DNA of 64,000 bases from Lachnospiraceae bacterium (lineage in GTDB: Bacteria; Bacillota; Clostridia; Lachnospirales; Lachnospiraceae), in contig JAGAQJ010000049.1 in NCBI GenBank assembly GCA_017622845.1, positions 24,052 through 88,051 of the forward strand, read 5' to 3'. The notes beneath the pieces are model-generated. The model ran no database searches, was not told where the DNA came from, and saw only the letters and a list, made by a program, of their open reading frames with translations. A program made the position numbers and the translations under genes. This document shows, piece after piece, positions 59,553 to 64,000 of the stretch; the first letter of the stretch is position 1, and the number at the start of each line of letters is the position of its first letter.

Positions 59553-60454
59553 ACGGAAAGACGAGAACCTGTGGACTGATTGGCAATCCGGTGGAGCATA
59601 CTCAGTCACCGGTGATACATAATACTCTGGCAAAAGAGCTCAACATCAATATGGCGTATGTGCCGTTTCATGTGCCGTCAGGACAGCTTGAGGCAGCAGT
59701 AAAGGGAGCGTTTGCATTAAATATTCTTGGCATGAACGTGACAGTACCGTACAAAAATGATGTGATTCCGTTTTTGTCAGATATTGATGAGCTTGCAGGA
59801 AAGATAGGTGCAGTCAACACTTTGGTGCGCACTGAGAGCGGCTACAAGGGATATAACACAGATATCACAGGACTGCTGCGCGCGATGAAAAGTGACGGTA
59901 TTATGATAAAGGACGAGGAAGTTATCATACTCGGAGCAGGCGGTGTGGGGCGTGCTGTTGCTTTTATGTGTGCGGCAAACGGCGCATCTAAAGTATATCT
60001 GCTCAACCGAAGTGTACAAAAGGCAGAAAGCGTGGCTGCCGAGGTCAGTCAAGCGCTGGAAACAGATTGTGTAACGGCTATGCCGCTATCCGCATACAAG
60101 GAGCTGTCACAGGATGGGGAGCGCAGATACCTGGTAATACAGAGTACAAGCGTTGGCTTATCGCCCAATATTGAAGATGTTGTGATTGACGATGAAGCAT
60201 TTTACCGCTGTGTGAAGTATGGGTATGATTTGATTTATTCTCCGTGGGAGACCAAATTCATGAAGCTTGTCAGGAAAAACGGCGGTGAGGCATATAACGG
60301 ACTGAAAATGCTGTTGTTTCAGGGAATTGATGCCTTTGAACGATGGAATGACTGTAAGGTGTCTGATGAAAACGCTTACAAGGTATATGAAAAGCTTGTA
60401 GCCGCAGTTGCACCGGAGAAAGGTCATGGAGAATGTGAGGAAGTAATATCATGA
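59543..60454 (+). CDS. aroE: Shikimate dehydrogenase
   Basis: NADPH-dependent reduction of 3-dehydroshikimate, fourth step of the shikimate pathway, 303 residues. GLIGNPVEHTQSPVIHNTLA opens the substrate domain; NVTVPYKNDV and GYNTDITGLLRAM hold the catalytic Lys and Asp; the nucleotide fold has VIILGAGGVGRAVAFM; GLKMLLFQGIDAFERWN closes it. GGAGG at 59528-59532 supports the ATG at 59543. It overlaps yqeG upstream and aroK downstream by four bases (ATGA), so the three are translated together. Confidence 0.96.
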   Translation: MEINGKTRTCGLIGNPVEHTQSPVIHNTLAKELNINMAYVPFHVPSGQLEAAVKGAFALNILGMNVTVPYKNDVIPFLSDIDELAGKIGAVNTLVRTESGYKGYNTDITGLLRAMKSDGIMIKDEEVIILGAGGVGRAVAFMCAANGASKVYLLNRSVQKAESVAAEVSQALETDCVTAMPLSAYKELSQDGERRYLVIQSTSVGLSPNIEDVVIDDEAFYRCVKYGYDLIYSPWETKFMKLVRKNGGEAYNGLKMLLFQGIDAFERWNDCKVSDENAYKVYEKLVAAVAPEKGHGECEEVIS

Positions 60455-60957
60455 AAAATATTATTCTGACAGGTTACATGGGAAGCGGCAAGACAACCAT
60501 CGGCAAGAAGCTTGCAAAGCTTACGGGATATACGTTTATGGATACCGACGAACTGATTGAACAACAGCAGGGCAGGACAATCAGTGAGATATTTGCTGCA
60601 GATGGTGAAGAAGCTTTTCGTGAAATGGAAACGAAGCTTCTGGAGCAGATGCTTGAAGAAAAAAAGGAACGGCTTGTAATTTCCACCGGAGGCGGAATGC
60701 CGCTTAGAGAAGAAAACAAGACTTTGCTTGCCGGACTTGGAGTGGTATTCTACCTAAAGCTCGAGCCGGAAACAGTATACAATAGAATCAAGGATGATAC
60801 CAAAAGACCGCTTCTGCAGTGCGATAATCCGCTTGCAAGGATAAAAGAAATGCTTGCAGTGCGCGGTCCGGTTTACGAAAGCGCTGCTCAACATATCATA
60901 CAGGTTGACGGCATTAAACAGAACGAGATTGCAGAGCAGATAATAAAATATATGTAA
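60451..60957 (+). CDS. aroK: Shikimate kinase
   Basis: Phosphorylates shikimate with ATP, the step after AroE, 168 residues. Walker A GYMGSGKTTIGKKLAKL, shikimate-binding DTDELIEQQQGRTISEIF and GEEAFREMETKLLEQ, the GGG motif VISTGGGMPLRE, and the lid with DTKRPLLQ. GTGAGGAAG lies before the ATG. Adjacent aroE makes its substrate. It is the last core gene before the AT-rich foreign segment. Confidence 0.96.
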   Translation: MKNIILTGYMGSGKTTIGKKLAKLTGYTFMDTDELIEQQQGRTISEIFAADGEEAFREMETKLLEQMLEEKKERLVISTGGGMPLREENKTLLAGLGVVFYLKLEPETVYNRIKDDTKRPLLQCDNPLARIKEMLAVRGPVYESAAQHIIQVDGIKQNEIAEQIIKYM

Positions 60958-61130
60958 GAGACAAATAGATATTTTGCAATAAATGTTAGAGTATATAATC
61001 TTATATTAGAAAATGAAATTAAATATTTTCAAAAAATATATAAGCAAAATGCATTTTACAGTAATAATATGATGTATTAATAAGAATATTGTATCACCTT
61101 AAGGATAAAATGATAGTGGAGGTGACTGCA

Positions 61131-62252
61131 ATGAAAATTGGAGGAAAGAGATATATGGCAGATGTTTTTGCTAATGAAGAAGAAGGCTATAGTTTAGATA
61201 TACCAAAGGAAAATCGTTTTCTTAATACTGCTGCATATGATTATTCAGTTGAATATTTATATAATTTGATAAAAAAAGGGAAAATTGTTTTAGAAGTACC
61301 TTTTCAAAGAAAGCATATTTGGAAAAATGATAAAGCTTCTATGCTGATTGAATCAATTATTATGAATGTTCCTATTCCTCCGTTGTATTTTGCTGAGGAG
61401 GAAGATGGGAAATGGTTGGTATTAGATGGTTTACAAAGACTATATAGTATATTAAATTTCTATGATAACGAGTTTGCATTAAGTAAGGTTGAAGTTTTAG
61501 AGGAACTTCAAAAAATGAAATATAAGGATTTACCACCTAAAGCAAAAAGTTTACTTGATGATGGATTGCTAAGGGTAAATATAATAAAAAAAGATTCTCA
61601 TAGGGATATCAAATACGATATTTTTATGAGGTTGAATAGAGGAGCAGTAACATTAAATTATCAAGAACTCCGCAATTGTTTATACCGTGGTAATTTAAAT
61701 GACGCTGCAAAAGAATTATGCAAAGAAAATCACACATTTATGAAAATATTAAAACAAAAAGAACCTAATTCCAGATATCTTGATGTTGAGTTTATCATAA
61801 GATATTTTGCTATATCAGATAATCTTGTAAAAGATTCTCAAAATAACATATATATTTTGGGCTATAAAGGTAAATTGGTTTCGTTTTTGAATGAATATAT
61901 GGATAAAAACAAAGATTGCTCTTTAGAGGAGAAAGCGAAGTATAAAGAACGTTTTAATCAAACAATAGAAAAAATTAGTAGTGTATATGGTGTAGATGAA
62001 GCTTTTAGAGATATATCAACTGATAATGTCAAAGTTTATAAAACTATTGCAGATTTTATAATGCCAAGTTTTGAGCGAATGAGTTTAGATTATGTCAACA
62101 ATCATAGGCTGGAATTATATGAAAAAACTAAGAGTTATCTTGCAAAAGAAATAACACAAAGTAGGTTGTTGATTAAGACATCTGATAAAGATGTTATGAA
62201 TGGAAAAATATCAGATTGGTTTAAGGAGTTCAATAATGAAATATCATTTTGA
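61131..62252 (+). CDS. DUF262 domain protein, candidate defence component
   Basis: A 373-residue soluble protein with the DUF262/GmrS-like ParB-type fold: LEVPFQRKHIWKNDKASMLI, then PPLYFAEEEDGKWLVLDGLQ with the DGxQR-type box (residues about 98-102) and FMRLNRGAVTLNYQELRNCL. No DUF1524 HNH domain is fused, unlike GmrSD, and the HEPN-like protein is encoded separately. GGAGGTGA precedes the ATG at 61131. The gene is far more AT-rich than its surroundings, with AAA/TTT/ATA codons favoured, which points to recent transfer. It overlaps the HEPN-like gene by 17 bases, so the two are a unit. DUF262 proteins are frequent in anti-phage loci; function here is inference. Confidence 0.85.
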   Translation: MKIGGKRYMADVFANEEEGYSLDIPKENRFLNTAAYDYSVEYLYNLIKKGKIVLEVPFQRKHIWKNDKASMLIESIIMNVPIPPLYFAEEEDGKWLVLDGLQRLYSILNFYDNEFALSKVEVLEELQKMKYKDLPPKAKSLLDDGLLRVNIIKKDSHRDIKYDIFMRLNRGAVTLNYQELRNCLYRGNLNDAAKELCKENHTFMKILKQKEPNSRYLDVEFIIRYFAISDNLVKDSQNNIYILGYKGKLVSFLNEYMDKNKDCSLEEKAKYKERFNQTIEKISSVYGVDEAFRDISTDNVKVYKTIADFIMPSFERMSLDYVNNHRLELYEKTKSYLAKEITQSRLLIKTSDKDVMNGKISDWFKEFNNEISF

Positions 62253-62736
62253 TGCTACAGAAGATTTTCTAATGCGTCAAAATGAGATAAAAATTTTATT
62301 AGAAACTGCACAAGAAAAAGACGATATTAGGAAAGAGACTTTTTTTAAATTATCAATTGTTTCATTGGTAACCAAGTTTCAAGTGTTCGTAGAAAGTGTA
62401 CTAAAAGAGTTTGTTTATTTAATAAAAATTAATCACATACAATATAAGAGATTGCCGTTGTATATGAAACTGAACTCTGTTAAAATTGACGTTGTCAATA
62501 ATGCACTTGTTAATTTATCAAAACATAATAAATTTGATGAGGATACAAGACAGAAAATTGAAAAGTATATTTTAAGCATAGACTATATCTTTAAAGATGA
62601 ACAGATTGTTAATGAAAATTTAAAGTTAAAAACTTCTTTTCCATTAGGAAGAACAGGAAAAGATGAATTATTAAATTTGTTTAAACAAATAAAAGGAGAT
62701 GAAAATATTTTTTCTAATACTGAACTAGTACATTGA
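62236..62736 (+). pseudogene. HEPN-like nuclease partner, truncated by an IS630 element
   Basis: 166 codons are left. The helical KLSIVSLVTKFQVFVESVLK segment followed by EFVYLIKI resembles the MAE_28990/RiboL-PSP-type HEPN proteins that accompany DUF262 genes (recognition from memory of this pairing). AAGGAG precedes the ATG at 62236 inside the end of the DUF262 gene. The IS begins at CTAG 62725, and the last codons (GTA CAT TGA) come from the element, so the true C terminus, probably with the catalytic R-H motif which is not visible here, lies beyond base 64000. Strongly AT-rich. Activity is probably lost in this copy. Confidence 0.65.
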
Positions 62737-62756
62737 ATAATAAATAATTGCTATAT
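62725..62756 (+). repeat. IS630 left inverted repeat
   Basis: Starts CTAGTACATTGAATAATAAA; the best-conserved inner block is TAAATAA..TGC.ATAT. It overlaps the stop codon of the transposase. Confidence 0.85.
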
Positions 62757-63913
62757 TATACCGATGCGGCTTCATCTTCGCTGATTTCATCCATTTTGTA
62801 CTTCCAGTGATAAACCACAGGCTCGCGGTTGACTTCTTCAAAGTACTTGTAAATCCGTTCTTCCAACTCCTGCTTAGAGTTGACACGAATCCCACGAAGC
62901 ATCTGTTTGGTCATCTTGCTAAAGAAGCTTTCAATCATATTTAACCAGGAGCCATGCTTGGGGGTAAATACAAATTTGAAACGTCCCTTTGGCATGGTGT
63001 CCAGAAAGCGCCGTGTTTCTTTGGAAGTATGTGCTGAGTGATTATCCAGAATGATTCTAATTGTATCTTGTGATGGATATTTTTTGTCCAGTATCTTAAG
63101 AAACTCAATAAAGTCAGAACTCTTGTGGGTCTCACTTACCAACGGAATAGCTTCTCCTGTAAGCAGATCAATACCAGCCAATAAAGAGAGCGTCCCAAGG
63201 CGCTTGTATTCTGCGTCACGATATACTTCTCCATTTTCTGCTGTAGGACGTAAGTCCGGTGCTGTATTGGAGATTGCTTGAATGCCGGGCTTTTCATCAT
63301 ACGATACAGTAATTGTCAGTTTATAGTCATCTGGAACAATGAGGTTACCATTTTCATCAAACTGCATTTCAATCTGCTTGTAAACCAGCAGCACATCATG
63401 CATTTTTGATTCGAAATCAGGATCACGTTTTTCACAATAATACTTGATTTTAAATGGTTTCATGTCCTGTTCTTTGAGAAACTTCTGAATATATGGCTTG
63501 GTAACTGTTGCGAGTCTTGGATAACCGGCATCTGCTGCATGCTTTTGAATATGTTTGTGCAGAGATGTCAAAGTCCAAAGTTCCTGCGCATAACCGAGTT
63601 CGGCTGGTCTCTGACAGGCAATACTGATAATCCATGCTTTTGCATCATCCGTAATCTCTGGCGGACGGCCCGTACGCTGGATGTCAAAAAGAGCCGCTTC
63701 AATCCCGCCTTCATTATATTTAGAAATACAAAGGCGTACAGTTGAAGTACTGATTGCAAGTTTTTCGGCAATTTCGATGAAGGTCAGTCCATCGGCTTTA
63801 TATAACAGAATTCTGGCACGGTCTACGGCTTGTGCCTGAATAGTTCTCTTTTTGGATAATGATTTAAGGTAATTTTTGTCTTCATCTGACAAAGCAAGAT
63901 ATGTTCTTTTCAT
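62756..63913 (-). CDS. IS630-family transposase
   Basis: DDE transposase of 385 residues. The N-terminal part is a Tc1-like paired helix-turn-helix (ARILLYKADGLTFIEIAEKL, then AISTSTVRLCISKYNEGG), and the catalytic core shows the first Asp in VSYDEKPGIQA, the second in IILDNHSAHTSKET, and the final acidic residue in HGSWLNMIESFFSKMTKQM. The frame is intact. The second ATG (63913) is chosen since AAGGG lies nine bases ahead; the first ATG (63922) overlaps that site. Confidence 0.94.
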   Translation of the reverse strand: MKRTYLALSDEDKNYLKSLSKKRTIQAQAVDRARILLYKADGLTFIEIAEKLAISTSTVRLCISKYNEGGIEAALFDIQRTGRPPEITDDAKAWIISIACQRPAELGYAQELWTLTSLHKHIQKHAADAGYPRLATVTKPYIQKFLKEQDMKPFKIKYYCEKRDPDFESKMHDVLLVYKQIEMQFDENGNLIVPDDYKLTITVSYDEKPGIQAISNTAPDLRPTAENGEVYRDAEYKRLGTLSLLAGIDLLTGEAIPLVSETHKSSDFIEFLKILDKKYPSQDTIRIILDNHSAHTSKETRRFLDTMPKGRFKFVFTPKHGSWLNMIESFFSKMTKQMLRGIRVNSKQELEERIYKYFEEVNREPVVYHWKYKMDEISEDEAASV

Positions 63914-63968
63914 AACGTTCATCCCTTCTTAGATGACACTATTTTACCACACATTATTCCGAAAAGAT

Positions 63969-64000
63969 ATATGGCAGTTATTTAATTTATTTTGTACTAG
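63969..64000 (-). repeat. IS630 right inverted repeat
   Basis: Read on the minus strand it starts CTAGTACAAAATAAATTAAA and matches the left end. Its outer tip is the final base of the window. Confidence 0.85.

What the first reader, a model, noticed from the sequence alone, without database searches (positions are those of the whole stretch)
61131..64000. Two-gene DUF262 + HEPN-like defence candidate, broken by an IS630 insertion
Seen: a DUF262 gene and a short helical gene overlap by 17 bases, are far more AT-rich than the aro genes before them, and the second frame ends five codons into IS630 DNA. Known: DUF262 occurs in GmrSD and other anti-phage systems, and MAE_28990-type HEPN proteins are often its neighbours. 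Inference: a compact type of defence unit acquired by transfer, with the effector half knocked out while the DUF262 half stays intact. Loss of the nuclease may have relieved self-toxicity.
Basis: partly seen in the sequence, partly recalled or inferred. Interest (0 to 1): 0.75.

Follow-up and report, generated by a model that had tools for sequence, protein, structure and literature searches.

The report
Phage-defence gene pair cut by transposon
A gut-type bacterium carries a two-gene unit of a known anti-phage type (a sensor-like protein plus a predicted RNA-cutting protein), and a jumping gene has landed in the second gene ahead of its catalytic motif; intact copies exist in related bacteria.

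Summary
Window 61131-62252 encodes an open 373-aa DUF262 (GmrSD_N) protein. A 17-base overlap leads into a second gene at 62236, which an IS630 element (62728-63997) cuts after codon 164. The pair is 27% GC against 43% for the window. The contig ends at the IS right end, so the far half cannot be read. Intact pairs occur in three other genomes (DUF262 71-80% identical to the window's, HEPN 44-64% over the window's part), all with the same 17-base overlap. In two of them tested (G107, G1008) the second protein passes Pfam's cutoff for RiboL-PSP-HEPN. All three carry R-x4-H, the HEPN catalytic motif (recalled), beyond the point where the IS cuts. DUF262 followed by HEPN was also seen on 5 of 5 plasmids opened and in phages. 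By domains it equals PD-T4-2, a tested E. coli anti-phage system. So this is a PD-T4-2-like unit with its effector broken: a new member of a known kind. Structure prediction never ran (server busy).

The parts
61131..62252 (+). DUF262 (GmrSD_N) protein, 373 aa, open frame; DGLQR motif kept
   Evidence: motif
62236..62252 (+). 17-base overlap of the two genes, also 17 bases in three intact relatives
62236..62736 (+). Truncated HEPN (RiboL-PSP-HEPN type) frame: 163 codons plus CTA, then two IS codons and TGA; lacks R-x4-H
62728..63997 (.). IS630 element; CTAG at both ends (TA at 62726-62727 and 63998-63999)
62756..63922 (-). IS630 transposase, 388 aa, open frame
60451..60957 (+). aroK (name recalled), host gene before the unit; in the genus aroQ usually follows it

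Best explanation
It is a horizontally acquired two-gene anti-phage unit of the PD-T4-2 kind (DUF262 + RiboL-PSP-HEPN), sitting after aroK where aroQ usually stands in this genus, and later broken by an IS630 insertion in the HEPN gene. Intact units most likely work like this: the DUF262 protein (NTPase domain with a DGxQR pocket) senses a cue of phage infection; NTP hydrolysis or a change of shape then frees or activates the HEPN ribonuclease made from the overlapping frame; the HEPN cuts RNA and stops phage growth, probably at the cost of the cell. In this genome the HEPN frame stops two codons into the IS, before R-x4-H, so the nuclease cannot be made from this frame and the unit should be dead as a defence. 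Shown here: domains, pairing, overlap, conserved motif, the cut ahead of the motif, and the same arrangement on plasmids and in phages. Inferred: sensing, NTP control, RNA target, cell death, loss of function in this strain.
For: GmrSD_N in the DUF262 protein; PF18735 above cutoff in the intact G107 and G1008 partners. Intact pairs in G107, G204 and G1008 with the same 17-base overlap. R-x4-H in the same columns in 17 of 17 intact rows of an 18-row alignment of DUF262 neighbours, missing only in the window's row. The gene after DUF262 is a PF18735 HEPN on 5 of 5 plasmids opened, of 768 with a match; two of the five are near-copies. A DUF262-like gene is followed by one noted RiboL-PSP-HEPN in a Vibrio phage, next to a CI-like repressor. 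PMC10952713 passages list DUF262 and PF18735 HEPN for PD-T4-2; PMC9519451 section 7 reports that deleting PD-T4-2 in its native strain strongly raised T4 plaquing. Low GC and differing neighbours in relatives fit transfer.
Against: PADLOC fits the DUF262 protein better to Menshen NsnA (1.8e-69) than to PD-T4-2_A (3.4e-46), and no tested HEPN partner matched a PD-T4-2 model; the only PADLOC hits among 18 members were weak single ones to Csx1 and DpdH. The far side of the IS cannot be read. No solved structure matched the pair's sequences in a meaningful way and no fold was predicted. Nothing here shows activity, and the passages read do not say whether PD-T4-2 kills the cell.
Confidence: 0.7

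Rival explanations
1. The intact pair is mainly a toxin-antitoxin module (HEPN toxin, DUF262 as its antidote) kept for stability of mobile DNA rather than for defence; the IS removed the toxin and left the antidote.
For: Small overlapping gene pair, common on plasmids; HEPN toxins with partner antitoxins are known (recalled; titles of HEPN/MNT papers seen in listing).
Against: DUF262 is a defence-type NTPase domain; the same DUF262 family pairs with ATPases in Menshen-like units; the pair stands beside restriction-type genes in G107 and G1008.
Confidence: 0.15
2. The DUF262 protein still works alone, as a nuclease or modified-DNA sensor with other partners, and the unit is not dead.
For: The DUF262 frame is open, with private changes at 14 of 247 sites against 8 of 241, 9 of 242 and 29 of 262 in the relatives.
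Against: DUF262 with HEPN behind it is the rule in its clade (4 of 4 rows); a recent insertion would leave no decay yet; no DUF1524 or HNH part was found in the protein.
Confidence: 0.1
3. The break is an assembly effect or a minority variant: a repeated IS was joined to this flank in a draft, and the gene is intact in most cells.
For: The contig ends exactly at the IS end; 76 contigs, 95.3% complete.
Against: The left junction lies inside a contig, at CTAG as in the other ends of IS copies seen. The far half was not found elsewhere in the assembly (best E 0.066). aroQ and efp queries found nothing either (no positive control), so a missing contig is the simpler reading.
Confidence: 0.05

Closest known systems
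PD-T4-2 (E. coli, Vassallo et al. 2022, PMC9519451; domains per PMC10952713)
   Same: Two components with DUF262 and PF18735 HEPN; P0001 matches the PADLOC model PD-T4-2_A at 3.4e-46
   Different: NsnA fits P0001 better; no HEPN partner matched a PD-T4-2 model; here the HEPN is broken
Menshen (NsnABC)
   Same: DUF262 protein fits NsnA best (1.8e-69)
   Different: The partner is a HEPN, not the NsnB ATPase and NsnC; ATPase-paired DUF262 form their own branch (97/99) without the window's protein
RiboL-PSP-HEPN in operon with ParB (Anantharaman et al. 2013, PMC3710099)
   Same: Its table lists Ribo L-PSP-HEPN as 'operon with ParB' and MAE_28990 'in operon with a ParB nuclease' (passages): the arrangement was already noted
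   Different: A domain census, without this clade or its break
GmrSD / BrxU / SspE
   Same: DUF262 domain with DGxQR
   Different: No DUF1524 or HNH nuclease domain in the pair

Membership tests
PD-T4-2 | First gene with DUF262, matching the PD-T4-2_A model | tested here: met
   3.4e-46, second to NsnA
PD-T4-2 | Second gene with PF18735 HEPN | tested here: met
   By the intact relatives G107 (2.4e-12) and G1008 (6.4e-13); the window's fragment is below cutoff
PD-T4-2 | Second gene recognised by a PD-T4-2 model of PADLOC | tested here: not met
   No such match; I did not see whether the library holds such a model
PD-T4-2 | Protection against phage | not testable with these tools
   Needs an experiment
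Menshen | NsnA with NsnB and NsnC beside it | tested here: not met
   NsnA model matched, but the partner is a HEPN in the three intact relatives
GmrSD | DUF262 plus DUF1524 nuclease | tested here: not met
   Pfam gave only GmrSD_N for P0001 and only HEPN for P0002 and P0004
RiboL-PSP-HEPN (PF18735) | Profile above cutoff and catalytic R-x4-H | tested here: met
   Intact relative: 47.6 bits against 28.4, R180/H185. The window's copy lacks the motif
HEPN fold | Helical bundle by structure prediction | not tested
   Server busy
IS630 | IS630 transposase, inverted ends, TA at the target | tested here: met
   NF033545 1.2e-67; ends and TA

The most novel reading that the evidence does not exclude
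DUF262 + HEPN pairs form a broad, mostly unnamed defence family in which one sensor family works with exchangeable effectors: PD-T4-2 is one branch, this Lachnospiraceae clade another, and the ATPase-paired Menshen type arose once from HEPN-paired stock.
Probability: 0.3. Interest if true: 0.5.

Novelty: new member of a known kind. Interest (0 to 1): 0.27.

Why it matters
It adds a Firmicute clade to a two-gene defence arrangement tested so far in E. coli, shows that PADLOC models miss its effector, and points to natural intact pairs that can be tested directly. The broken copy itself is an ordinary case of a defence unit lost to an insertion sequence.

Tried and rejected
MAE_28990 as the HEPN type: the intact relative matched PF18735 only, though 11 of 18 members of the wider alignment match PF18737 and 16 of 18 match PF18735. 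Contig C1 as the right-hand flank: its IS end differs at 3 of 217 aligned columns and the DNA beyond it is not HEPN. Weak hit on contig C66 for the missing C-terminus (E 0.066): two long frames of one strand were looked at by eye and neither resembles it. Close relatives outside cellular genomes: none for the window's HEPN fragment in plasmids and phages, none for the intact HEPN in plasmids and viral contigs, none for alignments A2 and A3 in viral contigs; the intact HEPN was not searched in phages. Distant DUF262 genes do occur in 768 plasmid and 28 phage records. Solved structures: no meaningful match for P0001, A2 or A1. dN/dS: synonymous sites are near saturation, so only constraint can be claimed.

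Full report
What is in the window. The DUF262 gene (61131-62252, 373 aa) is open from end to end and matches Pfam GmrSD_N at 2.4e-23. The second frame starts at 62236, overlapping it by 17 bases. Three intact relatives have a 17-base overlap too. GC is 27.8% for DUF262 and 24.3% for the HEPN part, against 45.2% for aroE-aroK and 43.2% for the window; the pair (26.8%) is below the 1st percentile (29.0%) of equal-length stretches of the window, a scan that includes the pair itself.

The break. An IS630 element lies at 62728-63997 with CTAG at both ends and an open 388-aa transposase frame. The window ends where contig G000:C33 ends, at the IS right end. The search of the own genome with the IS gave six places: this one, a 68% relative on C12, a 216-base piece at 99% at the end of C1, and three short pieces at 76%. 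The C1 piece differs at 3 of 217 aligned columns and leads into unrelated DNA.

Why the other half cannot be seen. The last 82 residues of the intact relative found only a weak hit (E 0.066) in the own genome. In the genus search, 36 of 38 genomes, the own included, had aroK, and loci were given for 19 relatives. In 17 of these 19, aroQ lies within about 1.5 kb after aroK, and in 10 of 19 efp is seen too (gene names are my reading of the sequences, not searched). Queries with aroQ and efp of one relative found no match in the own assembly; no positive control was run, and the tool warns that an empty answer alone shows little. The simplest reading is that a contig with the HEPN end, aroQ and efp is missing from this 95.3%-complete draft. 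So 'sequence after 64000 continues the HEPN frame' is neither confirmed nor refuted.

Intact relatives. The pair is intact in G107, G204 and G1008. Identity to the window: DUF262 79.0%, 79.6% and 70.7%; HEPN, over the window's 163 residues, 64.2%, 60.5% and 44.4%. It is rare in the genomes searched. Each search included the own genome, and the sets overlap. Genomes with a match beside the own: HEPN 1 of 194 searched, 1 of 392 and 0 of 391; DUF262 at E 1e-60 or better 2 of 348. Looser DUF262 matches were found in 61 of 392. Neighbours differ: a D12 methylase and an AlwI-type endonuclease in G107, a serine-recombinase-like frame about 4 kb away in G204 (my reading), and a DUF262-HNH gene in G1008. 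This fits transfer.

What the second gene is. The G107 protein matches RiboL-PSP-HEPN (PF18735) at 2.4e-12 over residues 14-216, the G1008 one at 6.4e-13; the G204 one was scanned only within the 18-member set, where 16 of 18 match PF18735 and 11 of 18 PF18737 at E 0.01 or better, without names per member. That set is small frames next to DUF262 genes, chosen by me from the loci. All 17 intact rows carry R-x4-H in the same columns; the window's row does not. That this is the HEPN catalytic motif is recalled. The H printed as invariant is, in the window's row, an IS-coded residue and an alignment artefact.

The arrangement elsewhere. Of 768 plasmid records with a distant DUF262 I opened 5, and in 5 of 5 the next gene is a PF18735 HEPN above cutoff; two of the five are near-copies. 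Of 28 phage records I opened 2: a Vibrio phage with a CI-like repressor, the DUF262-like gene and a gene noted RiboL-PSP-HEPN, and a Klebsiella phage with a 220-aa gene holding R-x4-H (not scanned by Pfam). A tree of 36 DUF262 proteins used labels given by me from neighbouring frames: 24 HEPN, 8 ATPase (only one of them checked by profiles), 4 other; loci L038 and L045 were left out as fragments. ATPase-paired proteins form one branch (97/99); the HEPN label needs 5 changes; the window's protein groups with its three relatives (100/100) and next with HEPN-paired plasmid proteins. 36 of 36 carry DGxQR.

How it most likely works. Passages of PMC10952713 describe DUF262 as an NTPase domain that in SspE triggers a nuclease, suggest the same for Menshen, and list DUF262 and PF18735 HEPN for PD-T4-2. 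Section 7 of PMC9519451 reports that deleting PD-T4-2 in its native strain strongly raised T4 plaquing; it does not say there whether PD-T4-2 kills the cell. By analogy, the DUF262 protein senses infection and the HEPN cuts RNA. These steps are inferred.

Membership. By domains it is PD-T4-2-like. By PADLOC the first protein fits NsnA (1.8e-69) better than PD-T4-2_A (3.4e-46), and no HEPN partner matched a PD-T4-2 model, so I do not file it as PD-T4-2 proper. It is not Menshen (no NsnB or NsnC beside the intact pairs) nor GmrSD (no DUF1524). The arrangement itself was listed in 2013 (PMC3710099, passages). In the paper library, 2 papers hold both 'DUF262' and 'HEPN', 4 hold 'PD-T4-2' and none 'RiboL-PSP' in that spelling; other papers were seen as listings only.

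State of the surviving gene. DUF262 pairwise dN is 0.147-0.228 over six pairs; synonymous sites are saturated in three of the six and near it in the rest. Private changes in the window's copy are 14 of 247 sites, against 8 of 241, 9 of 242 and 29 of 262: no clear decay, but a recent break would show none. Whether the break was selected or neutral cannot be decided.

Verdict. A real and well-spotted but ordinary event: a known type of two-gene defence unit, transferred in, then cut by an IS in its effector.

Noticed in passing
L050 3469-6846 (own genome, contig C68): A complete Menshen-like unit: NsnA 5.4e-104, NsnB 1.3e-89 and NsnC 1.1e-48 by PADLOC, so the same genome holds a second, apparently intact DUF262 system.
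   Followed up: partly
window 60957-64000 and own assembly: aroQ and efp, which mostly follow aroK in the genus, gave no match in the own assembly, hinting at a missing contig at this junction.
   Followed up: partly
L009 3413-4078 (contig C1): A 221-aa frame next to another IS630 end looks like an Rpn/PD-(D/E)XK type protein (my reading, not searched).
   Followed up: no
L052 2159-3283 (G1008): A single-chain DUF262-HNH gene stands near the DUF262-HEPN pair.
   Followed up: partly
L015 59-4138 (G107): A methylase frame with two D12 stretches and an AlwI-type endonuclease lie just before the intact pair.
   Followed up: partly
36 DUF262 proteins: ATPase-paired DUF262 form one branch while HEPN-paired ones are spread around it, hinting at one exchange of effector; labels rest mostly on my reading of neighbouring frames.
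   Followed up: partly
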